This document shows positions 17,319 to 50,765 of a stretch of DNA of 64,000 nt, piece by piece. The translations under genes and the position numbers were made by a program. How positions within the stretch are numbered: the first letter of the stretch is position 1; each line of letters begins with the position of its first letter. The stretch is from Paragyromitra xinjiangensis (taxonomy: Eukaryota > Ascomycota > Pezizomycetes > Pezizales > Discinaceae). The stretch lies in contig JBCAMK010000001.1 of assembly GCA_038503065.1 (NCBI GenBank), positions 3,348,001 to 3,412,000 on the forward strand. Reading direction: 5' to 3'. Under the pieces are notes generated by a model. The model saw nothing but the letters and a program-made list of their open reading frames with translations. It was not told the DNA's origin and did not search any database.

Positions 17319-17332
17319 GGGGGGGAGAGGGA
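17319..17332. repeat. 14-bp target-site duplication of LINE A (partner at 19641-19654)
   Basis: GGGGGGGAGAGGGA occurs directly before the (TTTA)n tail and again directly after the element's 5' end. It lies in a G-rich coding stretch of the DUF6532-like gene. Confidence 0.85.
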
Positions 17333-17591
17333 TTATTTATTTATTTATTTATTTATTGTTCATACTCGCATGCATCCGAAACGGATATGGCGTACAGCAG
17401 AAGAAAACCCAACAGGAACATAAAAGAAAACAAAACAAAACTAACTAATCCACCACCAGTTCCAACTCAGCCTCTTCTAGGCTCGTCATCAGTGAATGTG
17501 TTAATACCCCGATCTAGTGACTCCCTCTCACAGTGTCAAGACTACCCTGGGCATTCTTCCTTTACCATCGCTTGCTTTGTGCCTATAGCAC
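17333..17591 (-). promoter_or_regulatory. 3' UTR and tail of LINE A with two RNA hairpins
   Basis: In transcript sense: a hairpin GTGCTATAGGCAC (17579-17591), later the palindrome ATCCGTTTCGGAT (17374-17386), then AACAATAAATAAATA. The same two structures, with sequence differences, end LINEs D and G. Likely role: the recognition site for reverse transcriptase at the 3' end (inference from LINEs that need a specific tail). Confidence 0.6.
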
Positions 17592-17652
17592 TCCTTCCAC
17601 CAGGTCCGAAGACCCCTGAAGGTTGGATACATCAATAAGGGTGGGGTGTAAC

Positions 17653-19200
17653 TTAAGTTACCATGCGATCCTGACGTTCGCTGGCACTAAGTCTGGCTTG
17701 GGTGAGTTTGAGGCACCCAGAGAAGTTACCACGATGCGGTTCGTTACAGTTCTTGCAACGGATGATGGTGTGGAGGCAGGGAGCTCCCTTGATGGTGCAA
17801 GAGGAGTTTGCGCAGGAGTGGGAGGATGCTGTATGAGGCCCAGCACAGATGTTGCAGAAGGGTGTTTTGCTGGTACAGCGTTGTTGTGGGTGGCCAAAGG
17901 CCAGACAGGTAGTGCATTGGGTGTCTGGCCCAAAGCGAAGGTATTTGGTGACTTTGTGACGAAGTCCAAACATGGAGAGCCCTCTCTCAAGGGCAGTGGT
18001 GGCAGGCTGCTTCCCCACAATGGTAAGAACCATGGAGGATGCCTGTTTCCCCTCTCTCTGCTCAGGTCTGGTGAGCCAGCGGGGGTCGCGGAGTAGGGTG
18101 GTGCCTGGGTTGAACTGCTCAACCTCAGATCTGATTTGCTGGAAGCCCTCTTCGCCAGAGGGGATGGAGGTGGGAATGTTGTGCACAACAACCTGGGTCA
18201 GGACTGCTTCCTTCTCCATGCTGTTGGCATTGGGAATGGTGTTGCGAACAACTTCCTCAAGCTTCTGTCTTTGCTTAAGGAGGGAGTCAGAGGTGGTGGA
18301 GGTGACAGCAATGAGCTGCACATGGTGGGCTGGTGTGAATCGCACCTCTGCAATCAATGGCCTTTCCAGGGCAGCATTGACTGCATTGCGAATGAGGAGT
18401 GGGGTGATGTCATCAGGGATGGGTAGACCATTCCTGGTGATGATGAGAGTACGGTCGCGTTTTGGGGGGTTTGCTGGTGTTTTGGTAGGCTTGGATGCCT
18501 TGCTGGCGGGTCTAGGAGCCCTTTTTGAGGCAACCTGAGCCCAGGAGGTGGTGGCTGGCGGGGGAGCTGTTGCTGGAGGTAGGGGAAGGTTGGCAGAGGT
18601 CAGAATGGTTGTGAGGGTCCGTTTCTGTTCCAAGTCTGCAACCTTGGAGGTGAGGGTAGCCACCTTTTCCACTAGAGCTGGGTCGTTGTGGAAGGTAGGG
18701 GCTGGTGGGGGTGTATTGATGGCTTTTTCAAGCTGTTTGACGCGTTTTGTGAGTGCTTTGATGAGCCTGTTCTGCTCATCCATCACTGCGAAGAGGGAGG
18801 GGTTGTAGTTCTCCCCAGTACCAATGGCACCAAGGCGATCCAAATTGCTGTTAGAATCATCCATCTGGATGACTGGAGGTAGGGTGGTGGAAAAGGTGAG
18901 GGGTCCCTCAGTGTCCGTCATGTCAGAGTCAGACTCTTCCAGGAGGACAGAGCCACTCTCTGTGGGCTCTGTGGCGGGCAGGGAGGCATAGTGAGGTAGG
19001 GGGACTGCTGGGCGAAGTGGTAGGGCTTGAGTGGGTGTTTGCTCTGGGTCTCCATGGAGCAGAGGCGAAAATCGGGTGTTTGGGGGTGTTGTAGGGGCGC
19101 CAAAGGGCGTTTGGAGCGAGTTTTGGGGTGAGCTGGTCACAGAAGAGGGAGACCTGAAGCCTCTGCCTCTCCCTCTGCCTCTAGATGAAGAGGAAGACAT
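17653..19200 (-). CDS. ORF1 nucleic-acid-binding (Gag-like) protein of LINE A
   Basis: An intact 515-residue frame from the ATG at 19200 (MSSSSSRGRGRGRG). It opens with an Arg/Gly-rich and Pro/Ser-rich region. A heptad-like stretch at about 130-190 may be a coiled coil, followed by an RRM-like region (about 255-400) and three zinc knuckles at about 429-495: CTTCLAFGHPQQRC (CX2CX4HX4C), CNICAGPHTASSHSC and CKNCNEPHRGNFSGC. This is the standard plan of LINE ORF1 proteins that coat element RNA. The stop is followed directly by the 3' UTR, with no second ORF. The frame being kept open in A and Y suggests the protein still matters for transposition. Confidence 0.88.
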   Translation of the reverse strand: MSSSSSRGRGRGRGFRSPSSVTSSPQNSLQTPFGAPTTPPNTRFSPLLHGDPEQTPTQALPLRPAVPLPHYASLPATEPTESGSVLLEESDSDMTDTEGPLTFSTTLPPVIQMDDSNSNLDRLGAIGTGENYNPSLFAVMDEQNRLIKALTKRVKQLEKAINTPPPAPTFHNDPALVEKVATLTSKVADLEQKRTLTTILTSANLPLPPATAPPPATTSWAQVASKRAPRPASKASKPTKTPANPPKRDRTLIITRNGLPIPDDITPLLIRNAVNAALERPLIAEVRFTPAHHVQLIAVTSTTSDSLLKQRQKLEEVVRNTIPNANSMEKEAVLTQVVVHNIPTSIPSGEEGFQQIRSEVEQFNPGTTLLRDPRWLTRPEQREGKQASSMVLTIVGKQPATTALERGLSMFGLRHKVTKYLRFGPDTQCTTCLAFGHPQQRCTSKTPFCNICAGPHTASSHSCANSSCTIKGAPCLHTIIRCKNCNEPHRGNFSGCLKLTQARLSASERQDRMVT

Positions 19201-19295
19201 AGAGAAGGGTCCTGAACCGACAGGAGGTGGGGGGAGGTGTTGCTGGGCCCTGGGGGGGTCCCTGGCGGGTGGGGGAGGGTGGGAGCAGAAAGTGT

Positions 19296-19640
19296 CAACA
19301 ACTTTTGCAAATCGGCTCCGATCCGGACGAACGAGAGGGCGATCGAACGGGCACAGTGAGGGGACTCCAAAAAGCCCGGGGTCGAGTCAATCGGAGTAGT
19401 ATTGGTGGAGATATGAGGTTTTGCAAATTCTCAAAATTTGAGGTGTAGGGGGGAAAAGAGGGGTAAAACAGCGAATTCGACAACAACTATTGCAAATCGA
19501 GAGCGATTTCGACGTAGAATAGCAGGATCGAACGGGGGCAGCGAGCTGATTCCGAATAATCAAAAATCTCGTTAATCGGAGTAGTATTGGTGGAGTTGTG
19601 ACCAAAAAGTCACTTTGGCGTTGTTGTTGTCGGTATTGAT
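19296..19640 (-). repeat. 5' UTR of LINE A made of two 185-bp monomers
   Basis: CAACAACTTTTGCAAATCG (19296) and CAACAACTATTGCAAATCG (19481) start two homologous units, each containing GATCGAACGGG and AATCGGAGTAGTATTGGTGG. This resembles the repeated promoter monomers of some animal L1 elements. Promoter activity is inference. Confidence 0.6.
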
Positions 19641-19714
19641 GGGGGGGAGAGGGAGAAACGGTGGATAGCAGCGAGGTTCAGGAGGAGGATAGAGAGGATG
19701 CTTTAAGGGACTAG

Positions 19715-22073: not shown

Positions 22074-22698
22074 GATACTTGCCGGCCTTTGAGCGTTCGA
22101 CACCAGGCGGATTCAGTGGGAGGGAAGGGAGAGAGATATTAGAGTCGAAGGGCAATGTGAAGTGTCAGGAGGGGGTGCGAGGGTAGCGAGGGGTAGTGGG
22201 AGTAATGGTATGAGTATCGTGCCTGCCAGTGAGGATCCGGCAGCAAGCTTTAGAGGGGGGCTACGCATGTAATAATAGGCAGCTATAATTTATAATGGAA
22301 TCAATATATATACAAATACCTTCTAGAAGGCGTGATACCGCCCCAATGACAATTTGCAGCCAGGCGGTAGAAACGGAAGGTAGACCTCCAGGCGATATAA
22401 ATACAAAAACTACGGTCAGTGATAGGAGCTCTCGTCTGGACACGCAGAGGCCGGCAAGCAGCCTCCTGAGGACGACATCGGATTCCTACGAAGGGGAAAC
22501 GCAACGAAGTCCTCTGGACAATCAAATGACACAGTTAAGTCTTTTGGGCGGTCAAACGACGCGAATAGTGCCGCCCAGGCGATGTTCAGGCGCCCAGATG
22601 GCTAAGAAGCGCAGCAACTGGAGTCTAGAAGGGTAGGTTTCCGCCATGGCATTTTGCCGTCCAGACGGACTTTACGGCATTTCGGTTTTTTGCTGATG
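22074..22698. other. Spacer between gene 2 and LINE B
   Basis: No supported gene. A 113-codon plus-strand frame (22295-22636) has no family features. The stretch CCGTCCAGACGG near 22660, flanked by GGCATTTTG and ACGGCATTTCGG, looks like a small inverted repeat. It abuts the broken 3' end of LINE B and might be the end of another element. Confidence 0.3.
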
Positions 22699-25600
22699 TG
22701 GCCTGGCATAGGGAGGGGTGTTGTCATTCGTTGTACTGCTGCTTGGTTGTCACAGTAGATGTAGACATCGTTTGTCAGGTGAGGTGATCGCTGTACTTGT
22801 AGGATTGCATGCTTAGTGGCTTTTGCAATACCATAAAGTTCTGCGTCGAAGACTTCATTTTCTTTGCCGAGGTGGTAGGATTTGTTGACCACAGCGTGAC
22901 CTCTGCGGAAACCAGCAACTCCAGCTCCTGTTTTGCCTTCCAGGAGGGAGCCATCAGTGTAGAATACTAGGCGATCAGTCCTAGTACTGTCTCCAGCTGT
23001 GTGGTTCCAATGGTTTTCTGCTGCTGCGTCTTTGTCTGCAGGGTCAATGTAGATGTCTATGGTGTTTTGGTGCCATGGTGGACATGCCAGATTGTCTACG
23101 CATTCAATCTCTGATTGTGGCTGGACCCATTTGTTGGTAGATGCCAGTATCCTATGTAGTCTTGTTTCGTATTTGGGGGAGGTGGTGGTTTGGTGCCATG
23201 GAGTGTTGTTGGAGCTATCTGGGTTGTCGTTTTCCTGGGTTGAAGGCCAGGAGTCAGGGCAGAGGGAGGTGATGGGATGGGTGTTGGGTAGGGAAAGGAC
23301 TCGGAGTGCATATTTCCTTTGCAACTCATCCAATCTGATTGGGGTAGGGAGGAGTCCTGTCTCTGCTTCCAGGGCATGGACAGGTGAGGTTCTGAAGGCT
23401 CCAGCAATCTTGCGCATTGCTTGATTTTGGACTTTCTGGATGGTGTTGCTGAGTCCAATCTGCCCGTTCCACCATACTTCAGCTCCGAAGTCACTGATGG
23501 TGGCTACACAGGTTTGGTAGAGTTGGCGGAGTGCTCTGTAACTCAGTCCTTTTTCTGTGCTTGCAAGACGGGAGATAGCCATGAAGGCTCGAAGTGCGGA
23601 GGCAGCTTTGGTCTTCACATGATGTTTGAATGTGAGTTTGCGGTCAAACCAGACACCCAGCCATCGCTGGACATCTGAAGCCTCAATCACGTTGCCATCA
23701 GGCATTGTGACTTTGGCTTCATCAGAGGTGTCAGTTGTTCGTCTGGAGTGGAAGTGAGTGAGTTCTGTCTTTGGATTGTCAAAGTACAAGGCATTTTTCT
23801 CACCCCATTCAGAGGAGGTGAGTGCCATTGCTTCCAGTGTTCGAGAGTTTTCTGCTTCAGACTTTCCTGTAACCAGAAGGCCCACGTCATCGACATAGCT
23901 GGGGCAGGTGGAATCAGGATATTTTTCTTCTAGCTCGTTGAACAACGGAGCCAGGTAGAGGAGGAAGAGAATAGGGGAGGTGGGGGATCCTTGTGGGATG
24001 CCAGTTTGAATGGGTGCCATGGATTCAATTTCACCGTCGAATGCCATGCAGGCTGTTCGATTGCTGAGGAAGGAGTCCACCCATCGGCAGATGGGAAGTG
24101 GGAGGTCCAGTTCTATCATGGTCTTGATCAGTCGTCGTTTGAATACAAAATCATATGCACCTTTCACGTCCATACAAAGTGCAGAGAGTGTTAGGCCTTT
24201 CTTTTTGGCTGCATCGGCAAGCGTGCTGATAAGCATGCAAGCATCCACAGCTGATCTTTTTGGTCGACCTCCAATTTGCCATCTATGGAGAAGGTGATAT
24301 CTTTCTGCCATAAATGCTAATCGGGTTGCTATGATCTTTTCTGAGACTTTGCCGAGGCAGTTGAGGAGTGATACTGGTCTGTAGGCTTTTGCTATCGTAT
24401 AGTCAGGTTTATTGGCCTTTCTGATGATTGCAATTGTAGCTTCACGCCATATGGTTGGGTGGTATCCTGCTTTCATGGTGGCCTTGTAGAAGGAATTGAA
24501 CTGCGTTGGGTCGACTTGGTATGCTTTTTGAATGCATAGGAAGCCAATTCCATCAGGTCCAGGGGCTTTCTTTGGTGCTGAGGTCATGATTGCTTTCCGA
24601 ATCTCGTCGTTGGTGAGGTCTTTCCATGGGATCTTGTGTTTTCCTGCTGGAACAGGTTCATCAAGTTCCACTGAGGGAGGGGGAGGGAATAGAGTTGCTC
24701 GGAAGAGATTGGCTTTCTCTTCAAAGGTTTTGGACTCTTGGAGGGTGGTGGGATTGTGTAGGGTGGGGGTGCGTTCACATCTGCGTGGCTTGGTGTACCT
24801 CATTGCTGTGAAGACATCTTTTCCGTGAGCTTCTTCCAGGAATGTATTCCAGTGTTCACTCTTTGCTGTTCGGATTCGTCGGAAGTAGGATGTTCTCAAG
24901 TTTTTGAATCTTCGCCACATGGCTGGAGTCTGATCTGTTCTCCAGTCCCTGAGGGCTGTCTTCATGTGTCTGCGTCCTTCTTTGATGTCTTCATTCCACC
25001 AAGGTTTGGCGAAGGGTGATGGTTTTCGTTTGGGTACATGGATGTGGGCAGCTGCTATGATTGAATCTCGTAGGTGTTGAGCTGCTTCGTCTAGGTTTGA
25101 ATGGGTTGGGTGGGAGTGTAGGAACTCCCAGGTGTCTTTAGTGGTGATGGAGGAGAGGGTGAAAGTTTGTTGGAAGCCGTCCCAGTCCGCCTTGGCCCAA
25201 TTAAATTGTTCCGTTGATGGTGGGGGGGCACATTCCAAAGAGTCGGAGGCAATTTCAAACTGAACAACTTCATGGTCGGATCCTGTTGCAAGGTCTTCCA
25301 TGACTGCCCAGTTCATAATCAAGTCTGTCATCGGTGAGGAGGAGAAGGCAAGATCCAAAACGGATCTGCCAGTGCCTGTAGGGTAATTGTAGGTATAAAT
25401 ATCAGGCTCGTTAATGAGGGTATAGTTGAACTCTTCTAGTATAGCTAGGAGTGCTTCATGTCGTTTTGGTGAACGGACTCGTGAGTCCCAGAGAGGGTGG
25501 TGGGCATTGAAGTCACCTGCCATGATACAGCGTTCTGGTAGCTTTAGTCCCACAAGTACACGTTCAACCGTGTATTGTGGGTGGCTGTCAGGAACTCGTT

Positions 25601-25989
25601 GTGATGCTGCAGGTTGTTCATTGTAGATGTTAAGGAGGGTAAAAGCAGGAATGGAGGGGTTGACAGCTCTATGGCCTGTACATCTTCGTTATTGATGATG
25701 TCGGGTCTTGGCTGATATTTCAGGAAGAGGTTGGATTTGGATATAAAAGTCATGGTTCGAGGGCGGTTAATGCTGCTTGGAATCATCCTTGCGAATGACC
25801 CATGCGATATTGATGTCCATGAGTTTGGTGGTGCGTCAGGAGAAGTATCGGGCATAACAAAAGGTTCTTGAATAATAACTATATCAGCCGTTTCTGAGGC
25901 TGAGTCGAGGAGGATAACATAACATTTTGGTTTCTTCGGCAGTTGTGTTGCATCAGGCGGATCTTGTGTGGGTTTGGTTGCACAATCAT
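22699..25989 (-). pseudogene. ORF2 of LINE B: endonuclease, RT, partial RNase H
   Basis: It starts at the ATG at 25989, which overlaps the ORF1 stop as ATGA. An AP-type endonuclease is recognisable from VIIQEPF, IMAGDFNAHHPLWDS and TGSDHEVVQF. The reverse transcriptase follows (KAPGPDGIGF, AYRPVSLLNCLGK, CMDVKGAYDFVF, GIPQGSPTSP, YVDDVGLLV), then RNase H (VFYTDGSLL, VFDAELYGIAKA, IYCDNQAAV). Breaks: a missing C near 25912 and a second shift near 25655-25670, both in short C runs. After PLPMPG the frame runs into unrelated sequence and stops at 22602, so the last RNase H Asp, the C-terminal region and the 3' UTR are missing. Confidence 0.85.
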
Positions 25990-27590
25990 TGTTCCACCAT
26001 GATGTCTTTTTCAGTTCGGGAGAGGTCTGGGCGTGCAACACAGGACCTGTCAGTGGCTTTATGTGTTCCACCACAGTTGATGCATTTGGGAGGCATGTGG
26101 GCGCAGGAGTCAGTGGCTCTGCAAGTCCCACAGAAGTGCTTGTTGGTAGCATGTTCGTGTCCACAGTAGGCACAGGCTGGCTTGGAGGAGGGGCATCTCT
26201 GGAACTTGTGTCCAAACTTTTGACAGTTAGAGCATTGGTCACCAGGGCGCGCAGTCAAATAGGCTCCGGTCCTGTGTCTTTGGCCGAAGATGAGGATTCC
26301 GTTTTTGATCAGTTTGTTGTACATGCTTTTGCTGGTGATGGCAATCATCACCGAGCTGTGGGACTTTCCATTTCTCTTGTCTGGATGGGTCATGTAGCGA
26401 GGAGGTGCTGCCAGTTTGAGATCACTGTTTTGGTATTCCAGTTCGTTTTGCAAGTCGCTCATGCCAGTACGATTGTCAGGGTATTCCATGATTGGGACTC
26501 CATGGATGGCAACCTTGTGCCAGGACTCCTGTTTGGAGAGAAAGAGAGCTTTCTCATCGCTTTCCTTCACAACTTTCTCAATGGTGGCCTTGTGCAGGTC
26601 AAAGTCAGTGCTGGTGAATCCATTGCGAGTGTAGAGCAGGAGATTTGCTTTCAGGTTCCAGGAGATTCCTGAGATCTGGAGGCTTTCTGGTGCTTTGGCA
26701 GTCAGGAGTTCTTTGTTAATGGTGTTGCGCAGGATAAGGAGGTTGAGGTTTTCTTCTTTCTGATCACCGCTGCGTTGGACAATCATGTTCTTGGTGAGTT
26801 CTGGGGTTGGGGTTGTGGGGGTATCAGTGTTGGCCTTCGCAGGCTTTCCATCTTTCGCCACAGTGGCCCAAGTCTTTGGTGCAGGAGGTGGAGGAGGGGG
26901 AGGAGGTGCTGGCGTGTTTTCAGTTGCCTTTCCCTTTCCCTTGTTCTTCTTGGGTTGTTGGGGAGTGGTGGGGATTGTTGTTGCTGTGATTGCTGGTACT
27001 GCTGGAGTTGCTTTCAGGGTGCGGTGGATTGAATCTACTTTCCCGATCACAGTGTGGCTCATGGAGCCCAGGGAGGTTGAGATTTGGGTGGTGAGGTTGC
27101 TAACCATCATCTTGAGCTCAGCGATTTCCTTGTTCAGGTGTTCATTCTGTGCCATGAGGTGTTGGTTGACGTCGTTTTGACTCATTGGGAGTGCAAAGTA
27201 GCTGGGAGTGCGTTTGGGAGGTGGAGCAGATTGCTGTTGGTTGCCAAAGGTTCTCTTTGACGGGCCAGCTGCGGATCTGGTCCTGGTCATTGGTTCTGGC
27301 TCGTAAGTGAGGTCAATTCCTCCCAAAGTGTTCCTAAATGATAGAGGATGTGTGGGGGAGTTGCCAGCTGAGGAGAAGAATGGTGGTGGGAGTGTGATCT
27401 TGCGAGCAAATGGTGCTGGGAGAGGTTTGGTGGTGGAGGAAATAGGGTCGCTGCTCATGATGTCTGGAGCATGCTGGCTGACGTTCAGGAATCGGTTTGT
27501 GGCCGTTATGGTAGGGCTGGAGGGAGGTGAAGATGGAGGCACGACGGGAAGTTCCGTATCGTCTTGCATTTCATCCCCGTGGGCCGACAT
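25986..27590 (-). CDS. ORF1 nucleic-acid-binding protein of LINE B
   Basis: An intact 534-residue frame from the ATG at 27590 (MSAHGDEMQDDTELP). Order: a Pro/Ser/Thr-rich start, a helical QNEHLNKEIAELKMMVSNL segment likely to form a coiled coil, a Pro/Lys-rich linker with a run of prolines, an RRM-like region, and three zinc knuckles near the end (CSNCQKFGHKFQRC, CAYCGHEHATNKHFC, CINCGGTHKATDRSC). The stop overlaps the ORF2 start by ATGA, which suggests reinitiation. It is the best-preserved ORF1 of the B/D family here, since D's is frameshifted. Confidence 0.88.
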   Translation of the reverse strand: MSAHGDEMQDDTELPVVPPSSPPSSPTITATNRFLNVSQHAPDIMSSDPISSTTKPLPAPFARKITLPPPFFSSAGNSPTHPLSFRNTLGGIDLTYEPEPMTRTRSAAGPSKRTFGNQQQSAPPPKRTPSYFALPMSQNDVNQHLMAQNEHLNKEIAELKMMVSNLTTQISTSLGSMSHTVIGKVDSIHRTLKATPAVPAITATTIPTTPQQPKKNKGKGKATENTPAPPPPPPPPAPKTWATVAKDGKPAKANTDTPTTPTPELTKNMIVQRSGDQKEENLNLLILRNTINKELLTAKAPESLQISGISWNLKANLLLYTRNGFTSTDFDLHKATIEKVVKESDEKALFLSKQESWHKVAIHGVPIMEYPDNRTGMSDLQNELEYQNSDLKLAAPPRYMTHPDKRNGKSHSSVMIAITSKSMYNKLIKNGILIFGQRHRTGAYLTARPGDQCSNCQKFGHKFQRCPSSKPACAYCGHEHATNKHFCGTCRATDSCAHMPPKCINCGGTHKATDRSCVARPDLSRTEKDIMVEQ

Positions 27591-28124
27591 GGTTCCGGAA
27601 ATTTTCGGAAATTTTCGTGTAACGGATACTAAAAATAAATTGCCGAGACAAAAGTTGATTGGACGTTGAAGACCAGAGGCTGATTGGGTTCCACCGATGG
27701 AATGTTCCAGAAGGTAGCAGGTGATGTGCTGTCAGTCAGAATTGCAATATTCCGAGATTTCTGGCGATTTTGGGCGATAAAATGAGTACTACTCGGGCGC
27801 CTGTGGGCCGATTTGGCTGAAACTAAAAATCCTGGGCCGTAGTATGTAGGCGGCGTGGATGTGCAAGTTTCAAGTCAATCGGACAAGAATTGGTTGACTG
27901 GCGACGATTTTGAGGGGGGGCTCGGCGGGTTTTTTGGTGGGGTGAGCCCCAAAGAGGGGAAATGAAGGGGAAAATCACAACAACTTCTGCAATAGAAGAG
28001 ATGGATTTCCCAGGAGGTGTAGAAGGGGGTAAAAGGGGGCGCTGATTCCGAATATGAAGTCGGTTTGATGATATCTCTGTTGGTTGTGGAGTTATTTTCG
28101 AAAATTCGTCCTGGTAGAATGGTT
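27591..28124 (-). promoter_or_regulatory. 5' UTR of LINE B
   Basis: 534 bp with no ORF. It matches the 5' UTR of LINE D (39752-40286) closely and contains AATCACAACAACTTCTGCAA, similar to the monomers of the ORF1-only elements. It presumably holds an internal promoter. Confidence 0.5.
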
Positions 28125-38425: not shown

Positions 38426-39489
38426 TTATTTATTTATTTATTTATTATTCATACTCGCATGCATCCGAAACGGATATGGCGTACAGCAGAAGAAAACCCA
38501 ACAGGAACATAAAAGAAAACAAAACAAAACTAACTAATCCTCCACCAGTTCCAACTCAGCCTCTTCTAGGCTCGTCATCAGTAAATGTGTTAATACCCCG
38601 ATCTAGTGACTCCCTCTCACAGTGTCAAGACTACCCTGGGCATTCTTCCTTTACCATCGCTTGCTTTGTGCCTATAGCACTCCTTCCACCAGGTCCGAAG
38701 ACCCCTGAAGGTTGGATACATCAATAAGGGTGGGGTGTAACTTAAGTTACCATGCGATCCTGACGTTCGCTGGCACTAAGTTTGGCTTGGGTGAGTTTGA
38801 GGCAACCAGAAAAGTTACCACGATGCGGTTCGTTACAGTTCTTGCAACGGATGATGGTGTGGAGGCAGGGAGCTCCCTTGATGGTGCAAGAGGAGGTTGC
38901 GCAGGAGTGGGAGGATGCTGTATGAGGCCCAGCACAGATGTTGCAGAAGGGTGTCTTGCTGGTACAGCGTTGTTGTGGGTGGCCAAAGGCCAGGCAGGTA
39001 GTACATTGGGTGTCTGGTCCAAAGCGAAGGTATTTGGTGACTTTGTGACGAAGTCCAAACATGGAGAGCCCTCTCTCAAGGGCAGTGGTGGCAGGCTGCT
39101 TCCCCACAATGGTAAGAACCATGGAGGATGCCTGTTTCCCCTCTCTCTGCTCAGGTCTAGTGAGCCAGCGGGGGTCGCGGAGTAGGGTGGTGCCTGGGTT
39201 GAACTGCTCAACCTCAGATCTGATTTGCTGGAAGCCCTCTTCGCCAGAGGGAATGGAGGTGGGAATGTTGTGCACAACAACCTGGGTCAGGACTGCTTCC
39301 TTTTCCATGCTGTTGGCATTGGGGATGGTGTTGCGAACAACTTCCTCAAGCTTCTGTCTTTGCTTAAGGAGGGAGTCAGAGGTGGTGGAGGTGACAGCAA
39401 TGAGCTGCACATGGTGAGCTGGTGTGAATCGCACCTCTGCAATCAATGGCCTTTCCAGGGCAGCATTGACTGCATTGCGAATGAGGAGT
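38426..39489 (-). mobile_element. LINE copy X, 3' part (ORF1-only family)
   Basis: It holds the 3' half of ORF1 (38742-39488, from ...LLIRNAVNAALE... to the stop), the 3' UTR and the tail. Its upstream half is at 48381-49625; copy Y lies between, flanked by a 15-bp duplication. Hairpin at 38668-38680 and palindrome at 38463-38475. Confidence 0.88.
39475..39489. repeat. 15-bp target-site duplication of LINE Y in X (partner at 48381-48395)
   Basis: TTGCGAATGAGGAGT is found at the Y tail and again 3 bases after the Y 5' end (GTCGGTTCGT). It lies within ORF1 of X and shows that Y inserted into X. Confidence 0.88.
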
Positions 39490-39740
39490 TATTTATTTAT
39501 TTATTATTCATACTCGCATGCATCCGAAACGGATATGGCGTACAGCAGAAGAAAACCCAGCAGGAACATAAAAGAAAACAAAAACAAAACTAACTAATCC
39601 TCCGCCAGTTCCAACCCAGCCTCTTCTAGGCTCATTGTCAATGAATGTGTTAATACCCCGATCTAGTGACTCCCTCTCACAGTGTCAAGACTACCCTGGG
39701 CATTCTTCTCTCACCATCACATGTTTTGTGCCTATAGCAC
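39490..39740 (-). mobile_element. LINE copy Y, 3' end (tail and distal 3' UTR)
   Basis: This is the distal 3' UTR and tail of Y, separated from its body (46332-48380) by LINE D. It contains the palindrome at 39522-39534. The break with D falls exactly at the GTGCCTATAGCAC hairpin. Confidence 0.88.
39728..39740. repeat. 13-bp target-site duplication of LINE D in Y (partner at 46319-46331)
   Basis: GTGCCTATAGCAC occurs on both sides of LINE D. In uninterrupted copies A and X the same 13 bases occur once, as the 3' UTR hairpin. Confidence 0.9.
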
Positions 39741-40286
39741 TAAAGAGCGACAACCATTCTACCAGGACGAATTTTCGAAAATAACTCCACAACCAACAGA
39801 GATATCATCAAACCGACTTCATATTCGGAATCAGCGCCCCCTTTTACCCCCTTCTACACCTCCTGGGAAATCCATCTCTTCTATTGCAGAAGTTGTTGTG
39901 ATTTTCCCCTTCATTTCCCCTCTTTGGGGCTCACCCCACCAAAAAACCCGCCGAGCCCCCCCTCAAAATCGTCGCCAGTCAACCAATTCTTGTCCGATTG
40001 ACTTGAAACTTGCACATCCACGCCGCCTACATACTACGGCCCAGGATTTTTAGTTTCAGCCAAATCGGCCCACAGGCGCCCGAGTAGTACTCATTTTATC
40101 GCCCAAAATCGCCAGAAATCTCGGAATATTGCAATTCTGACTGACAGCACATCACCTGCTACCTTCTGGAACATTCCATCGGTGGAACCCAATCAGCCTC
40201 TGGTCTTCAACGTCCAATCAACTTTTTGTCTCGGCAATTTATTTTTAGTATGCGTTACACGAAAATTTCCGAAAATTTCCGGAACC

Positions 40287-41891
40287 ATGTCGGCCCCCGG
40301 GGATGAAATGCAAGACGATACGGAACTTCCGTCGTGCCTCCATCTTCACCTCCCTCCAGCCCTACCATAACGGCCACAAACCGATTCCTGAACGTCAGCC
40401 AGCATGCTCCAGACATCATGAGCAGCGACCCTATTTCCTCCACCACCAAACCTCTCCCAGCACCATTTGCTCGCAAGATCACACTCCCACCACCATTCTT
40501 CTCCTCAGCTGGCAACTCCCCCACACATCCTCTATCATTTAGGAACACTTTGGGAGGAATTGACCTCACTTACGAGCCAGAACCAATGACCAGGACCAGA
40601 TCCGCAGCTGGCCCGTCAAAGAGAACCTTTGGCAACCAACAGCAATCTGCTCCACCTCCCAAACGCACTCCCAGCTACTTTGCACTCCCAATGAGTCAAA
40701 ACGACGCGTCAACCAACACCTCATGGCACAGAATGAACACCTGAACAAGGAAATCGCTGAGCTCAAGATGATGGTTAGCAACCTCACCACCCAAATCTCA
40801 ACCTCCCTGGGCTCCATGAGCCACACTGTGATCGGGAAAGTAGATTCAATCCACCGCACCCTGAAAGCAACTCCAGCAGTACCAGCAATCACAGCAACAA
40901 CAATCCCCACCACTCCCCAACAACCCAAGAAGAACAAGGGAAAGGGAAAGGCAACTGAAAACACGCCAGCACCTCCTCCCCTCCTCCACCTCCTGCACCA
41001 AAGACTTGGGCCACTGTGGCGAAAGATGGAAAGCCTGCGAAGGCCAACACTGATACCCCCACAACCCCAACCCCAGAACTCACCAAGAACATGATTGTCC
41101 AACGCAGCGGTGATCAGAAAGAAGAAAACCTCAACCTCCTTATCCTGCGCAACACCATTAACAAAGAACTCCTGACTGCCAAAGCACCAGAAAGCCTCCA
41201 GATCTCAGGAATCTCCTGGAACCTGAAAGCAAATCTCCTGCTCTACACTCGCAATGGATTCACCAGCACTGACTTTGACCTGCACAAGGCCACCATTGAG
41301 AAAGTTGTGAAGGAAAGCGATGAGAAAGCTCTCTTTCTCTCCAAACAGGAGTCCTGGCACAAGGTTGCCATCCATGGAGTCCCAATCATGGAATACCCTG
41401 ACAATCGTACTGGCATGAGCGACTTGCAAAACGAACTGGAATACCAAAACAGTGATCTCAAACTGGCAGCACCTCCTCGCTACATGACCCATCCAGACAA
41501 GAGAAATGGAAAGTCCCACAGCTCGGTGATGATTGCCATCACCAGCAAAAGCATGTACAACAAACTGATCAAAAACGGAATCCTCATCTTCGGCCAAAGA
41601 CACAGGACCGGAGCCTATTTGACTGCGCGCCCTGGTGACCAATGCTCTAACTGTCAAAAGTTTGGACACAAGTTCCAGAGATGCCCCTCCTCCAAGCCAG
41701 CCTGTGCCTACTGTGGACACGAACATGCTACCAACAAGCACTTCTGTGGGACTTGCAGAGCCACTGACTCCTGCGCCCACATGCCTCCCAAATGCATCAA
41801 CTGTGGTGGAACACATAAAGCCACTGACAGGTCCTGTGTTGCACGCCCAGACCTCTCCCGAACTGAAAAAGACATCATGGTGGAACAATGA
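40287..41891 (+). pseudogene. ORF1 of LINE D, frameshifted
   Basis: It matches the intact LINE B ORF1 closely. Visible breaks: a lost C near 40330 (CTTCCGTC versus CTTCCCGTC), extra bases near 40706 (GACGCGTCAACC versus GACGTCAACC), and a length change in the proline run near 40980. From 41016 the frame is open to the stop at 41891, including the RRM-like region and all three zinc knuckles. The stop overlaps the ORF2 start (ATGA at 41888-41891). Confidence 0.85.
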
Positions 41892-44800
41892 TTGTGCAAC
41901 CAAACCCACACAAGATCCGCCTGATGCAACACAACTGCCGAAGAAACCAAAATGTTATGTTATCCCTCCTCGACTCAGCCTCAGAAACGGCTGATATAGT
42001 TATTATTCAAGAACCTTTTGTTATGCCCGATACTTCTCCTGACGCACCACCAAACTCATGGACATCAATATCGCATGGGTCATTCGCAAGGATGATTCCA
42101 AGCAGCATTAACCGCCTCGAACCATGACTTTTATATCCAAATCCAACCTCTTCCTGAAATATCAGCCAAGACCCGACATCATCAATAACGAAGATGTACA
42201 GGCCATAGAGCTGTCAACCCTCCATTCCTGCTTTTACCCTCCTTAACATCTACAATGAACAACCTGCAGCATCACAACGAGTTCCTGACAGCCACCCACA
42301 ATACACGGTTGAACGTGTACTTGTGGGACTAAAGCTACCAGAACGCTGTATCATGGCAGGTGACTTCAATGCCCACCACCCTCTCTGGGACTCACGAGTC
42401 CGTTCACCAAAACGACATGAAGCACTCCTAGCTATACTAGAAGAGTTCAACTATACCCTCATTAACGAGCCTGATATTTATACCTACAATTACCCTACAG
42501 GCACTGGCAGATCCGTCTTGGCTCTTGCCTTCTCCTCCTCACCGATCACAGACTTGATTATGAACTGGGCAGTCACGGAAGACCTTGCAACAGGATCCGA
42601 CCATGAAGTTGTTCAGTTTGAAATTGCCTCCGTCTCTTTGGAATTTGCCCCCACCATCAAAGGAACAATTTAATTGGGCCAAGGCGGACTGGGACGGCTT
42701 CCAACAAACTTTCACCCTCTCCTCCATCACCACTAAAGACACCTGGGAGTTCCTACACTCCCACCCAACCCATTCAAACCTAGACGAAGCAGCTCAACAC
42801 CTACGAGATTCAATCATAGCAGCTGCCCACATCCATGTACCCAAACGAAAACCATCACCCTTCGCCAAACCTTGGTGGAATGAAGACATCAAAGAAGGAC
42901 GCAGACACATGAAGACAGCCCTCAGGGACTGGAGAACAGATCAGACTCCAGCCATGTGGCGAAGATTCAAAAACTTGAGAACATCCTACTTCCGACGAAT
43001 CCGAACAGCAAAGAGTGAACACTGGAATACATTCCTGGAAGAAGCTCACGGAAAAGATGTCTTCACAGCAATGAGGTACACCAAGCCACGCAGATGTGAA
43101 CGCACCCCCACCCTACACAATCCCACCACCCTCCAAGAGTCCAAAACCTTTGAAGAGAAAGCCAATCTCTTCCGAGCAACTCTATTCCCTCCCTCCCTCA
43201 GTGGAACTTGATGAACCTGTTCCAGCAGGAAAACACAAGATCCCATGGAAAGACCTCACCAACGCACTTTCCAGATTCGGAAAGCAATCATGACCTCAGC
43301 ACCAAAGAAAGCCCCTGGACCTGATGGAATTGGCTTCCTATGCATTCAAAAAGCATACCAAGTCGACCCAACGCAGTTCAATTCCTTCTACAAGGCCACC
43401 ATGAAAGCAGGATACCACCCAACCATATGGCGTGAAGCTACAATTGCAATCATCAGAAAGGCCAATAAACCTGACTATACGATAGCAAAAGCCTACAGAC
43501 CAGTATCACTCCTCAACTGCCTCGGCAAAGTCTCAGAAAAGATCATAGCAACCCGATTAGCATTTATGGCAGAAAGATATCACCTTCTCCATAGATGGCA
43601 AATTGGAGGTCGACCAAAAAGATCAGCTGTGGATGCTTGCATGCTTATCAGCACGCTTGCCGATGCAGCCAAAAAGAAAGGCCTAACACTCTCTGCACTT
43701 TGCATGGACGTGAAAGGTGCATATGACTTTGTATTCAAACGACGACTGATCAAGACCATGATAGAACTGGACCTCCCACTTCCCATCTGCCGATGGGTGG
43801 ACTCCTTCCTCAGCAATCGAACAGCCTGCATGGCATTCGACGGTGAAATTGAAGCCATGGCACCCATTCAAACTGGAATCCCACAAGGATCCCCCACCTC
43901 CCCTATCCTCTTCCTCCTCTACCTGGCTCCATTGTTCAACGAGCTAGAAGAAAAATATCCTGATTCCACCTGCCCCAGCTATGTTGATGATGTGGGCCTT
44001 CTGGTTACAGGAAAGTCTGAAGCAGAAAACTCTCGAACACTGGAAGCAATGGCACTCACCTCCTCCGAATGGGGTGAGAAAAATGCCTTGTACTTTGACA
44101 ATCCAAAGACAGAACTCACTCACTTCCACTCCAGACGAGCAACTGACACCTCTGATGAAGCCAAAGTCACAATGCCTGATGGCAATGTGATTGAGGCTGC
44201 AGATGTCCAGCGTTGGCTGGGTGTCTGGTTTGACCGCAAACTCACATTCAAGCATCATGTGAAGACCAAAGCTGCCTCCGCACTTCGAGCCTTCATGGCT
44301 ATCTCCCGTCTCGCAAGCACAGAAAAAGGACTGAGTTACAAAGCACTCCGCCAACTCTACCAAACCTGTGTAGCCACCATCAGTGACTTCGGAGCTGAAG
44401 TATGGTGGAACGGGCAGATTGGACTCAGCAACACCATCCAGAAAGTCCAGAATCAAGCAATGCGCAAGATTGCTGGAGCCTTCAGAACCTCACCTGTCCA
44501 TGCCCTGGAAGCAGAGACAGGACTTCTCCCTACCCCAATCAGATTGGACGAGTTGCAAAGGAAATATGCACTCCGAGTCCTTTCCCTACCCAACACCCAT
44601 CCCATCACCTCCCTCTGCCCTGATTCCTGGCCTTCAACCCAGGAAAACAACAACCCAGATAGCTCCAACAACACTCCATGGCACCAAACCACCACCTCCC
44701 CCAAATACGAAACAAGACTACACAGGATACTGGCATCTACCAACAAATGGATCCAGCCACAATCAGAGATTGAATGCGTAGACAATCTGGCATGTCCACC

Positions 44801-45890
44801 ATGGCACCAAAACACCATAGACATCTACATTGACCCTTCAGACAAAGACGCAGCAGCAGAAAACCATCGGAACCACACAGCTGGAGACAGTACTAGGACT
44901 GATCGCCTAGTATTCTACACTGATGGCTCCCTCCTGGAAGGCAAAACAGGAGCTGGAGTTGCTGGTTTCCGCAGAGGTCACTCTGTGGTCAACAAATCCT
45001 ACCACCTCGGCAAAGAAAATGAAGTCTTCGACGCAGAACTTTATGGTATTGCAAAAGCCACTAAGCATGCAATCCTACAAGTACAACGATCACCTCACCT
45101 GACAAACGATGTCTACATCTACTGCGACAACCAAGCAGCAGTACAACGAATGACAACACCCCTCCCTATGCCAGGCCAACACCTGGTCATTGAAGCCCGC
45201 AACAACTTGCTTCAACTCGAAGACAGTGGCATCAAAACCCATGTTTATTGGGTACCAGGACATGTCAATGTTGCCGGCAACGAGCTAGCTGATAAGCTCG
45301 CCAAGATAGGAGCCCAAGGAACCAGGATAGAATCAGATGTCCTCACCTCCATCACATACCTCAAGAGAAACATCAAGGAACACTCCCTGACGACATGGAA
45401 AGCCAAATGGAAGCAGGCAAAGAAAGGCCGCAGCTACTACGGACAACCAGCACTGAAACCAAGTGCCCCGCTGAGGGGAAACATCCCCAGAAGAACAGCC
45501 TCCACCATCACTCAAATGAGAACCGGACATGGATACACCAAATCCTACCTTGCCAGAATCCCTACCAACAACATTGAAGACACTAAATGCAAATGTGGCT
45601 TCGATAACCAAACACCACAACACCTACTGCTAGAATGTGGCCAGGAACCACTTCCTGCCCATCGCAAAGCACTCAAAGCAGCCCTCAAACCAATGCCACT
45701 CACATGGAGAACTGCAATGCACACCAATGCCGGCCTGGCTGCCACCATTGAAACATTCCTCACACCTACCCAAATCGCTACCAGAAATTGGACCCTGGAA
45801 CGACAAGAAGACAACAGGTATTCCCACCAAGGAATTTACCTCTACAACGATGAAGAGGAAGAAAACGAAGGAGAAGGAGAGAACGGCTAG
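41888..45890 (+). pseudogene. ORF2 of LINE D: endonuclease, RT, RNase H
   Basis: The N-terminus (MIVQPNPHKIRLMQHNCRRN) is intact here, unlike in B. Frameshifts occur near 42112 (CGCCTCG for CGCCCTCG), 42220, 42650, 43190 and 43260, all within the endonuclease and the linker before RT. From about 43250 to the stop the frame is open: RT with YVDD at 43980-43991, RNase H (VFYTDGSLL, FDAELYGIAK, YCDNQAAV, NVAGNELADKLA) and a C-terminal CKCGFDNQTPQHLLLEC finger. It supplies the missing C-terminus of family B. Endonuclease activity is lost unless the indels are sequence errors. Confidence 0.88.
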
Positions 45891-46331
45891 AAAGAACGGG
45901 CTACAGGCCCAAAGCATGCGATGGTGAAGGACGATAGAAAACTGATGAAGACCCTGAAAGTGGGGTGAGATGGAACATGACCGTGTGGAGGATTTCTGAT
46001 TATGAAACTGTTTGAGTATTTCCCTATGATTTTACCCTGTCGATTGTTATTCCGTTCGTTTCTACTGTTCGGTAGAACTTTGAGATAAATTGTTATTTCC
46101 TCTTTTGTTATCTTTTATGTTATTTGTTTTTGATTTACTTTTCTTATGTTTTTCGCGAAAGATATCTGATGTGGATATCTACTAACTAGTTGGTTCATGT
46201 TCGCGGAGGATTTTCTTTTGTTAGTTATTGTGCGGTTATGGGGGTTTCCTTTCACTGTATGCCATATCCGTTACGGATTTATGCAATATGAGCAATAAAT
46301 AAATAAATAAATAAATAAGTGCCTATAGCAC

Positions 46332-48380
46332 TCCCTCCACTAAGCCCGAAGGCCCATGAGGGCTGGATAAATCAATACAGGTAGGGGGAAACTTTAAAGA
46401 ACCATGCGATCCTGACGTTCGCTGGCCTTAAGTCTTGCTTCAGTGAGTTTGAGGCAACCAGAAAAGTTACCACGATGCTGTTCGTCACAGTTCTTGCAAC
46501 GGATGATAGTATGGAGGCAAGGAGCTCCCTTGATGGTGCAAGAGGAGGTTGCGCAGGAGTGGGAGGATGCTGTATGAGGCCCAGCACAGATGTTGCAGTA
46601 AGGCGTTTTGCTGGTACAGCGTTGTTGTGGATGGCCAAAGGCCAGACAGGTTGTGCATTGGGTATCTGGTCCGAAGCGAAGGTATTTGGTGACTTTATGG
46701 CGAAGTCCAAAGAGTGAGAGCCCTCTTTCAAGGGCAGTGGTGGCAGGTTGTTTCCCCACAATGGTCAAAACCATGGAAGAGGCCTGCTTTCCCTCTCTCT
46801 GCTCAGGCCTAGTGAGCCAGCGAGGGTCGCGGAGTAGGGTGGTGCCTGGGTTGAACTGCTCAACCTCAGATCTGATCTGCTGGAATCCCTCTTCGCCAGA
46901 GGGGATGGAGGTGGGGACATTGTGCACAACAACTTGGGTAAGGATGGCTTCCTTTTCCATGCTGGTGGCATTGGGGATGGTGTTGCGAACTACTTCTTCA
47001 AGCTTTTGTCTCTGCTTGAGAAGGGAGTCGGAGGTGGTGGAAGTGACAGCAATGAGCTGCACATGGTGTGCTGGTGTGAATCGCACCTCTGCAATCAATG
47101 GCTTGTCTAGGGCAGCATTGACTGCATTGCGAATGAGGAGTGGGGTGATATCATCAGGAATGGGTAGACCATTCCTGGTGATGATTAGGGTACGGTCGCG
47201 TTTTGGGGGGTTTGCTGGTGGTTTTGTAGGCTTGGAGGCCTTGCTGGCGGGTCTAGGAGCCCTTTTAGAGGCAACCTGAGCCCAGGAGGTGGTGGGTGGC
47301 AGGGGAGCAGCTGCTGGAGGTAGGGGGAGGTTGGCAGAAGTCAGAATGGTTGTAAGCGTCCGTTTCTGTTCCAAGTCTGCAACCTTGGAGGTGAGGGTAG
47401 CCACCTTTTCCACTAGAGCTGGGTCATTGTGGAAGGTAGGGGCTGGTGGGGGTGTGAGGATAGCTTTTTCAAGCTGCTTGACGCGTTTGGTGACTGGTTT
47501 GATGTGCCTGTTCTGGTCATCCATCACTGCGAAGAGGGAGGGATTGTAGTTCTCCCCAGTACCAATGGCACCAAGGCGATCTAGGTTGCTGTTAGAGTCG
47601 TCCATCTGGATGACTGGAGGTAGGGTGGTGGAGAAGGTGAGAGGTCCCTCAGTGTCCGTCATGTCAGAGTCAGACTCTTCCAGGAGGACAGAGCCACTGT
47701 CTGTAGGCTCTGTGGCGGGCAGGGAGGCATAGTGGGGTAGGGGGACTGCTGGGCGAAGTGGCAGGGCTTGAGTGGGTGTTTGCTCTGGGTCTCCATGGAG
47801 CAGAGGCGAAAAACGGGTGTTTGGGGGTGTTGTAGGGGCACCAAATGGCGTTTGGAGCGAGTTTTGGGGTGAACTGGTCACAGAAGAGGGAGACCTGAAG
47901 CCTCTGCCTCTCCCTCTGCCTCTAGACGAAGAGGAAGACATGGAGGAGGGTCCTGAACCGACAGGAGGTAGGAGGGGTGGTGCTGGGCCCTGGAGGGGGT
48001 CCCTGGCGGAGGGGGGTGGGAAATCGAGCAGAACTTCTGCAGTTCTGGTCGGATCCGAACGAACGAGAGGGCGATCGAACGGGCGCGCTAAGGCGGTTCC
48101 AAAAAGCCCGGGGTCGAGCTAATCGGACGAAAACTGGTGGAGTTATGACAAAATGCAGATTGCCAAAGTTTGGTGAGGTTTTTGTTGTTGGGGGGGAAAA
48201 GAGGGGTAAAACAGCGAATTCGACAACAACTTTTGCAAATCCGGAGCAAACCAGACGTACAATAGCAGGATCGAACGGGGCAGCAAGGCGAGTCCGAATA
48301 ATCAAAAAGTAGAGCAATCGGAGTAAAACTGGTGGAGTTGTGACCAAAAAGTCACTTTGGCGTTGTTGTTGTCGGTTCGT
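46332..48380 (-). mobile_element. LINE copy Y, main body (ORF1-only family)
   Basis: 5' end at about 48377 (AACCGACAACAACAACGCC in sense, plus three extra bases), a two-unit 5' UTR, an intact ORF1 and the proximal 3' UTR up to the hairpin where D inserted. It lies inside copy X. Confidence 0.88.
46394..47941 (-). CDS. ORF1 nucleic-acid-binding protein of LINE Y
   Basis: An intact 515-residue frame, the same length as in copy A and differing mostly by scattered substitutions (for example VMDDQNRHIKPVTKR versus VMDEQNRLIKALTKR). It has the same Arg/Gly start, coiled-coil-like segment, RRM-like region and three zinc knuckles, ending SERQDRMVL. With A it shows that two separate insertions keep the full ORF1. 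Its mRNA 3' end is now interrupted by LINE D, so this copy should no longer be mobile. Confidence 0.88.
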   Translation of the reverse strand: MSSSSSRGRGRGRGFRSPSSVTSSPQNSLQTPFGAPTTPPNTRFSPLLHGDPEQTPTQALPLRPAVPLPHYASLPATEPTDSGSVLLEESDSDMTDTEGPLTFSTTLPPVIQMDDSNSNLDRLGAIGTGENYNPSLFAVMDDQNRHIKPVTKRVKQLEKAILTPPPAPTFHNDPALVEKVATLTSKVADLEQKRTLTTILTSANLPLPPAAAPLPPTTSWAQVASKRAPRPASKASKPTKPPANPPKRDRTLIITRNGLPIPDDITPLLIRNAVNAALDKPLIAEVRFTPAHHVQLIAVTSTTSDSLLKQRQKLEEVVRNTIPNATSMEKEAILTQVVVHNVPTSIPSGEEGFQQIRSEVEQFNPGTTLLRDPRWLTRPEQREGKQASSMVLTIVGKQPATTALERGLSLFGLRHKVTKYLRFGPDTQCTTCLAFGHPQQRCTSKTPYCNICAGPHTASSHSCATSSCTIKGAPCLHTIIRCKNCDEQHRGNFSGCLKLTEARLKASERQDRMVL

Positions 48381-50018: not shown

Positions 50019-50684
50019 GGCTCCTACTGTCCCATCAGTCCGGCCCTATTCTACTACACATGCTAGAGGCAGTATATAACAAGCGACCGTCCACCTCGCT
50101 TCCACACTTCCCTCCATCATCTCCGACCGCAAACTCAACACCACAAATCACCTCTCCCAGAATCTCACGAAACCAAAAAGTCTCTATCTCTTTGGCATCG
50201 TTCATCACCACACCCCATCCCGCATCTGGGAACTCATCACTCCCATCGCTCCCCCATCAACCTGGCTCCCAATACTCCCCCCAGAGTATCGCCATCACCA
50301 CCCGCAACTCCTGTCCGACTTGTTTGGGCCGCTACTTCGCCAACGCCAGTTGTTTCGCCCGAATTTCTCTTTTGGCTCCTACTGTCCCATCAGTCCGTAG
50401 CCCTATTCTACTCCACATACTAGAGGCAGTATATAACAAGCGACCGTCCACCTCGCTTCCACACTTCCCTCCATCATCTCCGACCGCAAACTCAACACCA
50501 CAAATCACCTCTCCCAGAATCTCACGAAACCAAAAAGTCTCTATCTCTTTGGCATCGTTCATCACCACACCCCATCCCGCATCTGGGAACTCATCACTCC
50601 CATCGCTCCCCCATCAACCTGGCTCCCAATACTCCCCCCAGAGTATCGCCATCACCACCCGCAACTCCTGTCCGACTTGTTTGG
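50019..50684 (+). repeat. 355-bp direct repeat containing the LINE E 5' UTR
   Basis: Units start at 50019 and 50374 (GGCTCCTACTGTCCCATCAG). Each holds a short flank followed by the element start AGAGGCAGTATATAAC and about 265 bp of 5' UTR. The first unit ends in 44 bp of unrelated sequence before the second begins. It is a doubled promoter or a partial copy in front of E. Confidence 0.75.
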
Positions 50685-50765
50685 GCACCCATCACACCCA
50701 CACCTATTGCTGGGCGCAAACGCACATCCAGCCACCTCTCTCCCCATCTTACCCGAACCTCCAAC

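What the first reader, a model, noticed from the sequence alone, without database searches (positions are those of the whole stretch)
17333..19640. A fungal LINE lineage that keeps only ORF1 (HAL1-like)
Copies A (17333-19640), Y (39490-39740 plus 46332-48380) and X (38426-39489 plus 48381-49625) share the same structure: repeated 5' UTR, 515-codon ORF1, 3' UTR, (TAAA)n tail, and no ORF2. A and Y keep the full frame, and A, Y (and X inferred) are separate insertions. ORF1-only LINE derivatives are known in mammals (HAL1); I do not know of a described fungal counterpart. The lineage spreads although it lacks its own endonuclease and RT, yet retains ORF1, suggesting cis-packaging by its own protein.
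Basis: partly seen in the sequence, partly recalled or inferred. Interest (0 to 1): 0.75.

Follow-up and report, generated by a model that had tools for sequence, protein, structure and literature searches.

The report
ORF1-only LINE in fungal centromere-like islands
A jumping gene in a fungus has kept only its RNA-packaging protein, probably borrows its copying enzyme from a relative with matching ends, and was found in just one region of each chromosome-sized piece, most likely the centromere.

Summary
Element A (17333-19640, minus strand) is one of at least 33 end-to-end copies of a 2.3-kb LINE: 5'UTR, ~515-codon ORF1, 3'UTR, (TAAA)n, no ORF2. One copy read from each of two diverged subfamilies (~80% and ~73% ORF1 identity) has the same anatomy, so the loss is old. 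Copies are separate insertions with 12-16 bp target-site duplications, mode 14. ORF1 is under purifying selection: omega 0.138; shared N:S changes 42:160, singletons 84:80. It is predicted to carry two RRM-like folds. The likely RT donor is LINE-P, an EN-RT-RNaseH LINE in the same window. It shares 5'UTR and 3'UTR homology, a terminal ATCCGTTNCGGAT motif and the (TAAA)n tail; two other LINE families do not. All 64 exact ORF1-only 3' ends and all 56 LINE-P ends lie in one interval (at most 196 kb) on each of 22 contigs, presumably centromeres. It works like mammalian HAL1, and more like Drosophila HeT-A, but belongs to neither. Trans-mobilisation, cis-packaging and centromere identity are inferred.

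The parts
17333..19640 (-). ORF1-only LINE copy A, complete: 5'UTR 19201-19640, ORF1 17653-19200, 3'UTR and (TAAA)n tail 17333-17652
17653..19200 (-). ORF1, 515 codons: low-confidence N-terminus, helices 134-162 and 174-200, two RRM-like folds ~247-420, C-terminal CCHC-like Cys/His motifs
   Evidence: Cys/His motifs read from the sequence, that part of the model has low confidence
17319..17332 (.). TSD of A, 3' side (low-complexity G-run target)
19641..19654 (.). TSD of A, 5' side
17368..17390 (-). 3'-end motif CCATATCCGTTTCGGATGCATGC, ORF1-only type
46319..48376 (-). ORF1-only copy Y, 5' part: 5'UTR, 515-codon ORF1 (46394-47941), start of 3'UTR
39489..39741 (-). ORF1-only copy Y, 3' part (rest of 3'UTR and tail)
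39728..39741 (.). TSD of the LINE-P insertion into Y (other copy 46319-46332)
   Evidence: read by eye
48381..49624 (-). ORF1-only copy X, 5' part (ORF1 interrupted by Y)
38426..39489 (-). ORF1-only copy X, 3' part
39475..39488 (.). TSD of Y within X (other copy 48381-48394)
   Evidence: read by eye
39747..46318 (+). LINE-P copy inserted in Y; coding regions damaged in this copy; 5' end GCGACAACC; 3' end motif and (TAAA)n shared with the ORF1-only element
46262..46284 (+). LINE-P 3'-end motif CCATATCCGTTACGGATTTATGC
22602..28124 (-). Second LINE-P copy: ORF1 534 aa (25986-27590), open frame 22602-25553 with EN and RT matches; identity to the plus copy stops near 22699, before the 3' end

Best explanation
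An old, non-autonomous LINE lineage that arose from a relative of LINE-P by losing the whole of ORF2 while keeping 5'UTR, ORF1 and 3'UTR. Its RNA is probably bound by its own ORF1 protein (helices, two RRM-like folds, CCHC-like motifs) and copied by the endonuclease/reverse transcriptase of LINE-P, which would recognise the shared 3' end (block after the stop codon, terminal motif, (TAAA)n) and insert it by target-primed reverse transcription, leaving 14-bp target-site duplications. It and LINE-P are found only in one interval per contig, presumably the centromere. Shown: anatomy, copy number (lower bound), TSDs, selection on ORF1, end homology with LINE-P and not with the two other LINE families tested, confinement of all exact 3'-end matches. 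Inferred: trans-supply of ORF2 by LINE-P, cis-packaging by ORF1, centromere identity, and whether confinement is targeting or survival.
For: 33 of 57 matches run end to end with no ORF2. 53 of 55 held ORF1 3' ends meet the 3'UTR within 71 bp, and the other 2 are broken by later insertions. One copy each of subfamilies B (L070) and C (L069, TSD ACCGCCTGGCTCTT inside another LINE) has the same anatomy. TSD in 21 of 28 complete copies by rule, mode 14 bp; LINE-P TSDs 13-15 bp in 6 of 10 copies examined. omega 0.138; lnL -6547.6 against -6881.3 at omega 1. Shared N:S 42:160, singletons 84:80, neutral expectation 2.3-2.9. 60 of 69 near-full-length ORF1s carry no in-frame stop (recounted). 3'UTR blocks shared with LINE-P: local scores 36 and 37.5 against null maxima 22 and 20; LINE-Q and LINE-R within their nulls. 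5'UTR homology to LINE-P: score 38, 0 of 300 shuffles. 10 of 53 LINE-P ORF2 matches cover query residues 10-881 or 10-880 in stop-free frames of 1317-1351 codons (counted). RRM-like folds: Foldseek E 9.8e-6 to the two-RRM protein UP1. All 120 exact 3' ends lie in 22 single intervals, summed width 2.28 Mb against a random mean of 31.5 Mb.
Against: No RT donor is shown directly; end similarity to LINE-P is ~86% over 78 nt, not identity. The terminal stretch folds no better than shuffles for A (z -0.92) and LINE-P (z +0.91), only for subfamily C (z -2.68). TSD length alone does not single out LINE-P, as LINE-Q and LINE-R TSDs were not measured, and 4 of 10 LINE-P copies showed no clear TSD. 7 of 28 ORF1-only copies fail the TSD rule (detail in the Full report section). 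dN/dS copies were picked by high score, which favours intact frames. Confinement is not unique: LINE-R is confined too (37 scored matches), and Gypsy, though dispersed, is over-represented in the intervals (27 of 69). Only 1 of 12 aligned ORF1s has even a weak Pfam zinc-knuckle match (E 0.67).
Confidence: 0.78

Rival explanations
1. Recent deletion derivative: copies are a recent burst from a single ORF2-deleted LINE, and ORF1 looks conserved only because it was functional in the autonomous parent.
For: The 33 end-to-end copies are 88-100% identical to A, compatible with recent spread of that group. The copies read share one anatomy.
Against: The subfamily C copy, synonymous distance 0.6-0.7 from A, has the same anatomy. 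Changes shared by two or more ORF1-only copies, which arose mainly while spreading, are strongly skewed to synonymous (42:160). No ORF2-bearing parent with this ORF1 was found among 84 scored places, though 497 of 581 candidates were not scored.
Confidence: 0.07
2. ORF1 is kept for a service in trans (helper or targeting protein for LINE-P or for the centromere) rather than for packaging its own RNA.
For: It is co-confined with LINE-P and LINE-R to one interval per contig. A review passage, partly cut, speaks of HeT-A Gag in bringing other telomeric element mRNAs towards chromosome ends (PMC5537684, passages).
Against: LINE-P has an ORF1 of its own (534 aa). Selection acts on many dispersed copies, which a trans service would not readily enforce copy by copy (reasoning).
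Confidence: 0.15
3. The one-interval-per-contig distribution is passive: LINEs insert everywhere but persist only where insertions are tolerated.
For: Nested insertions into other LINEs occur. Several Gypsy copies outside the intervals carry many stops, so elements elsewhere may be inactivated or lost. Gypsy is also over-represented in the intervals: 27 of 69 matches in the intervals plus 50 kb, which is about a tenth of the genome.
Against: Near-identical stop-free Gypsy pieces do persist outside (C1:2054337, 100%; C15:1151956, 99%), and 42 of 69 Gypsy matches are outside. No exact ORF1-only 3' end lies outside (0 of 64).
Confidence: 0.4
4. The RT donor is another LINE (LINE-Q or LINE-R), not LINE-P.
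For: Both are present in the same intervals.
Against: Their 3' ends and tails differ, (AAATTGG)n and (ACACTAAA)n as read from the sequence, and their 3'UTR similarity is within shuffles; 5'UTR similarity is at chance for LINE-Q and near chance for LINE-R (7 and 25 of 300 shuffles reach its scores). The LINE-Q end used is inferred from its place before another LINE-Q copy.
Confidence: 0.06

Closest known systems
HeT-A of Drosophila (with RT-encoding relative TAHRE)
   Same: Abundant non-LTR retrotransposon with Gag and no pol, confined to one chromosomal domain; a relative (TAHRE) has a Gag that highly resembles HeT-A's plus Pol, with conserved DNA regions (PMC5537684, passages). Sharing of the UTRs is recalled.
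   Different: HeT-A lies at chromosome ends in one orientation in head-to-tail arrays (same passages). This element inserts internally, in both orientations, with 14-bp TSDs, in one interval per contig; other host and LINE lineage.
HAL1 (half-L1) of mammals
   Same: Non-autonomous LINE derivative encoding only ORF1p (PMC5753468, passages).
   Different: HAL1 derives from L1 and arose several times in mammals (same passages). Here the relative is a LINE with an RNase H domain, and ORF1 has two RRM-like folds and CCHC-like motifs. Confinement of HAL1 is not mentioned in the passages seen.
G2/Jockey-3, a LINE enriched at Drosophila centromeres
   Same: Non-LTR element present in all centromere contigs of that study (PMC6516634, passages).
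   Different: About 63% of its copies are in centromere contigs and it is not centromere-exclusive; here 64 of 64 exact 3' ends are in the intervals. CENP-A association was measured there, not here.
SINEs sharing the 3' end of a partner LINE
   Same: Trans-mobilisation through a shared 3' tail is the same principle (recalled; only the start of the abstract of PMC3747384 was seen, in the listing).
   Different: SINEs encode no protein (recalled); this element keeps a selected ORF1.

Membership tests
HAL1 | Encodes ORF1p only, no ORF2 | tested here: met
HAL1 | Derived from mammalian L1 | tested here: not met
   Only named ORF1 relatives are from the fungus Maublancomyces gigas; the relative LINE-P carries an RNase H domain
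HeT-A | Non-LTR element with Gag only, no pol | tested here: met
HeT-A | Location at chromosome ends, one orientation | tested here: not met
   Internal intervals, both orientations, TSDs
HeT-A | Pol-bearing relative with related Gag and conserved DNA regions | tested here: met
   LINE-P: ORF1 28% identity over ~300 aa, 5' and 3'UTR homology; the ORF1 likeness is much weaker than 'highly resembles'
Non-autonomous LINE moved by target-primed reverse transcription | Target-site duplications and 3' simple-repeat tail | tested here: met
   21 of 28 by rule, mode 14 bp
Non-autonomous LINE moved by target-primed reverse transcription | Copied by a partner LINE's ORF2 protein | not testable with these tools
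   Needs a mobilisation assay; only end homology was tested
Functional LINE ORF1 protein | Purifying selection and RNA-binding fold | tested here: met
Centromeric element | Association with CENP-A chromatin | not testable with these tools
   Only position was tested: one interval per contig on 22 of 22

The most novel reading that the evidence does not exclude
A centromere counterpart of the Drosophila HeT-A/TAHRE telomere system: a gag-only LINE and its RT-bearing relative target, or are retained only in, centromeric chromatin, with the ORF1 protein supplying the address and the elements building the centromere array of every chromosome.
Probability: 0.22. Interest if true: 0.87.

Novelty: new variant of a known kind. 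Interest (0 to 1): 0.66.

Why it matters
ORF1-only LINEs are known from mammals (HAL1) and, as gag-only HeT-A, from Drosophila; the listings of my ten library searches showed no fungal one. This family is old, has at least three subfamilies, keeps ORF1 under selection, and sits beside a candidate RT donor with matching ends. That makes the question of why a LINE keeps ORF1 without ORF2 directly testable in a small genome. Its confinement to one interval per contig offers a sequence marker for likely centromeres, with internal comparisons (other LINEs with different ends, a dispersed Gypsy family).

Tried and rejected
Recent single deletion: rejected, see rivals. ORF2 hidden in one copy: C10:938197 lies in a 1109-codon frame, which proved to be an insertion into a LINE-Q ORF2. 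Two of 55 held ORF1 3' ends lack an adjacent 3'UTR: C13:869013, whose 3'UTR is broken by unrelated sequence with no ORF2 match in the held flank, and a fragment ending at C2:2942691, broken by the 5' end of a LINE-P copy. My early idea that the two LINE-P copies in the window are a segmental duplication was dropped, because the plus copy has its own TSD in Y (read). The script assumed that all loci were turned to the match strand; they are not, so its blank rows mean nothing and the work was redone. In one search some rows show ORF2 matches beyond the 3'UTR; these are neighbouring LINEs.

Pfam and NCBIfam gave no family for A's ORF1. Outside relatives of ORF1: four Maublancomyces gigas proteins (only the 8000 candidates sharing most words were scored); one JGI protein (P0005, 46%) and three M. 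gigas proteins. Whether those lie in ORF1-only elements could not be seen. LINE-P ORF2 has many relatives, the best 54% identical.

Zones built from LINE-P and LINE-R matches alone, plus 50 kb, hold 108 of 125 ORF1-only hits; the other 17 are on C3, C5 and C13, where few or no LINE-P or LINE-R matches were scored. In one search the shuffles kept single-base content only, and the tail of subfamily C was not stripped.

Literature: ten searches, seen as listings, showed no fungal ORF1-only LINE; two of them returned no paper. The primary HAL1 paper is not held. Three papers were read as passages only.

LINE-P, LINE-Q and LINE-R are called L1, L2 and L3 in my notes and scripts.

Full report
What was checked. 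Copy A is a 2308-bp unit on the minus strand: 5'UTR 19201-19640, a 515-codon ORF1 at 17653-19200, and a 3'UTR ending in (TAAA)n at 17333. Y and X are real copies. LINE-P sits inside Y's 3'UTR with a 14-bp TSD, and Y sits inside X's ORF1 with a 14-bp TSD, giving the order X, then Y, then LINE-P (TSDs read by eye). I saw no TSD for X itself.

Genome-wide anatomy. The window is part of a 48.2-Mb genome in 22 contigs. A DNA search with A gave 57 matches from 40 of 161 candidates scored; 33 of 57 align from one end to the other in one piece, at 88-100% identity. A protein search with ORF1 gave 85 matches from 84 of 581 candidates scored: an A-like group (mostly 93-100%), a group near 80% and a group at 71-73%. 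These counts are lower bounds. Of 69 matches covering nearly the whole ORF1, 60 have no in-frame stop. In the 45 merged stretches that I could read, 55 ORF1 matches above 60% identity reach residue 507 or later: 48 meet the 3'UTR within 30 bp, and 5 of subfamily C type within 57-71 bp, where the first part of the 3'UTR is too diverged to match. Two do not meet it, and both are broken by later insertions, one of unrelated sequence and one of a LINE-P 5' end. Comparing 84 ORF1 places with 52 LINE-P ORF2 places, only two have a LINE-P ORF2 within 6 kb downstream on the same strand, at 3.0 and 3.4 kb; both have their own 3' end directly after ORF1. One copy of the 80% group (L070, 494 aa) and one of the 73% group (L069, 499 aa) were read in full, and both have the same ORF2-less anatomy.

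Insertion mechanism. Of 28 complete copies in held sequence, 21 pass a strict TSD rule with lengths 12-16 and mode 14 (13 of 21); for A itself the shuffle maximum equals the observed length. Of the 7 that fail, two have duplications of 15 and 10 bp that miss the position rule (the 10-bp one equals its shuffle maximum). Two on C12, in opposite orientation, carry each other's flanks, the signature of an inversion of about 130 kb by recombination between them. One has an imperfect duplication and two have none. LINE-P gave 13-15 bp duplications in 6 of 10 copies examined and none clear in 4.

Selection. 35 of 40 near-complete held ORF1s are intact. Among 33 A-group copies the codon-model omega is 0.138, with lnL -6547.6 against -6881.3 for omega fixed at 1. 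Changes shared by at least two copies are 42 nonsynonymous to 160 synonymous, singletons 84 to 80; neutral expectation is 2.3-2.9 to 1 (34 multi-step codons skipped). Shared changes arose mainly before insertion, so ORF1 mattered while the element spread. Singletons are also below neutral, as expected if the best-scoring copies are over-represented. Pairwise NG86 ratios are 0.11-0.14 at dS 0.05-0.3; they are 0.23-0.36 in the closest pairs and 0.27-0.31 beyond dS 0.3, where the fast N-terminus of subfamilies B and C enters (split by region). Subfamily B looks mosaic: its C-terminal part is close to Y and its N-terminal part closer to C.

The partner. LINE-P has EN, RT and RNase H domains, and 10 of its 53 ORF2 matches cover nearly the whole query in stop-free frames of 1317-1351 codons (52 of 424 candidates scored). 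Its ORF1 is only 28% identical to A's. Its 3'UTR shares two blocks with the ORF1-only 3'UTR, one near the start and one over the last ~75 nt, including ATCCGTTNCGGAT and (TAAA)n. Tail-stripped local scores are 36 and 37.5 against null maxima of 22 and 20; LINE-Q and LINE-R scored 13-20 with null maxima 19.5-28.5. The 5'UTR also matches LINE-P's (38 against null maxima 23.5 and 21.5, 0 of 300) and not LINE-Q's (46 and 99 of 300 shuffles reach its scores); LINE-R is near chance (7 and 25 of 300). The LINE-Q and LINE-R ends used are inferred from their place in arrays. Most ORF1-only and LINE-P 5' ends read carry CGACAAC near the start. So the element looks like LINE-P's kin with ORF2 removed. 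The terminal motif can form a hairpin, but folding is not unusually stable in A or LINE-P, so its role rests on conservation.

Confinement. The exact 23-base 3' end of the ORF1-only type occurs 64 times in the genome and that of LINE-P 56 times; the reversed-pattern controls give 0. All 120 fall in a single interval on each of the 22 contigs, at most 196 kb wide, 2.28 Mb in sum against a mean of 31.5 Mb (minimum 25.3) in 1000 random placements. A looser pattern counted 158, of which 100 were listed; none of these 100 lies outside the intervals plus 50 kb. LINE-R shows the same confinement among its 37 scored matches, of 508 candidates. A Gypsy family does not: 27 of 69 matches (38 of 298 candidates scored) lie in the intervals plus 50 kb, still more than their share of the genome. 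One island per contig, at varying internal position, is what centromeres look like; no chromatin data were available. The window is near 50% GC, so this island is not AT-rich.

Host and relatives. Named ORF1 relatives outside are from Maublancomyces gigas (Pezizomycetes); one more is a JGI protein. The host is therefore probably a member of Pezizomycetes or near it (inference).

Verdict. It is best described as an old, ORF2-less sister lineage of LINE-P, kept by selection on ORF1 and probably copied in trans. It is HAL1-like in anatomy and HeT-A-like in being a gag-only element confined to one chromosomal domain beside a pol-bearing relative.

Noticed in passing
G000 C12:825914-828205 and C12:957357-959646 (L008, L007): Two ORF1-only copies in opposite orientation carry each other's target-site flanks, indicating an inversion of about 130 kb by recombination between them.
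   Followed up: partly
L070 (C18:884000-887300): Subfamily B is mosaic: C-like N-terminal and Y-like C-terminal part of ORF1, suggesting template switching or recombination between subfamilies.
   Followed up: partly
window 50100-64000: LINE-R copies lie head to tail with a period near 5.67 kb.
   Followed up: no
window 22699-28124 and 39752-45178: Two LINE-P copies 99-100% identical in opposite orientation, indicating recent activity.
   Followed up: partly
G000, Gypsy copies outside the intervals: Several carry many stop codons (up to 9 TGA, 3 TAG, 14 TAA), while scored LINE copies inside the intervals carry few.
   Followed up: no
window 10828-12198: Plavaka-type transposase match, Pfam E 1.1e-17.
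   Followed up: no
G000 C19:879510-879953: One ORF1-only copy is followed by a long run of tail-like TAAA repeats, roughly 90-125 bp.
   Followed up: no
window 27823-28124: The last ~100 codons of the LINE-Q RT frame (27823-29919) are LINE-P 5'UTR read through after a LINE-P insertion.
   Followed up: yes
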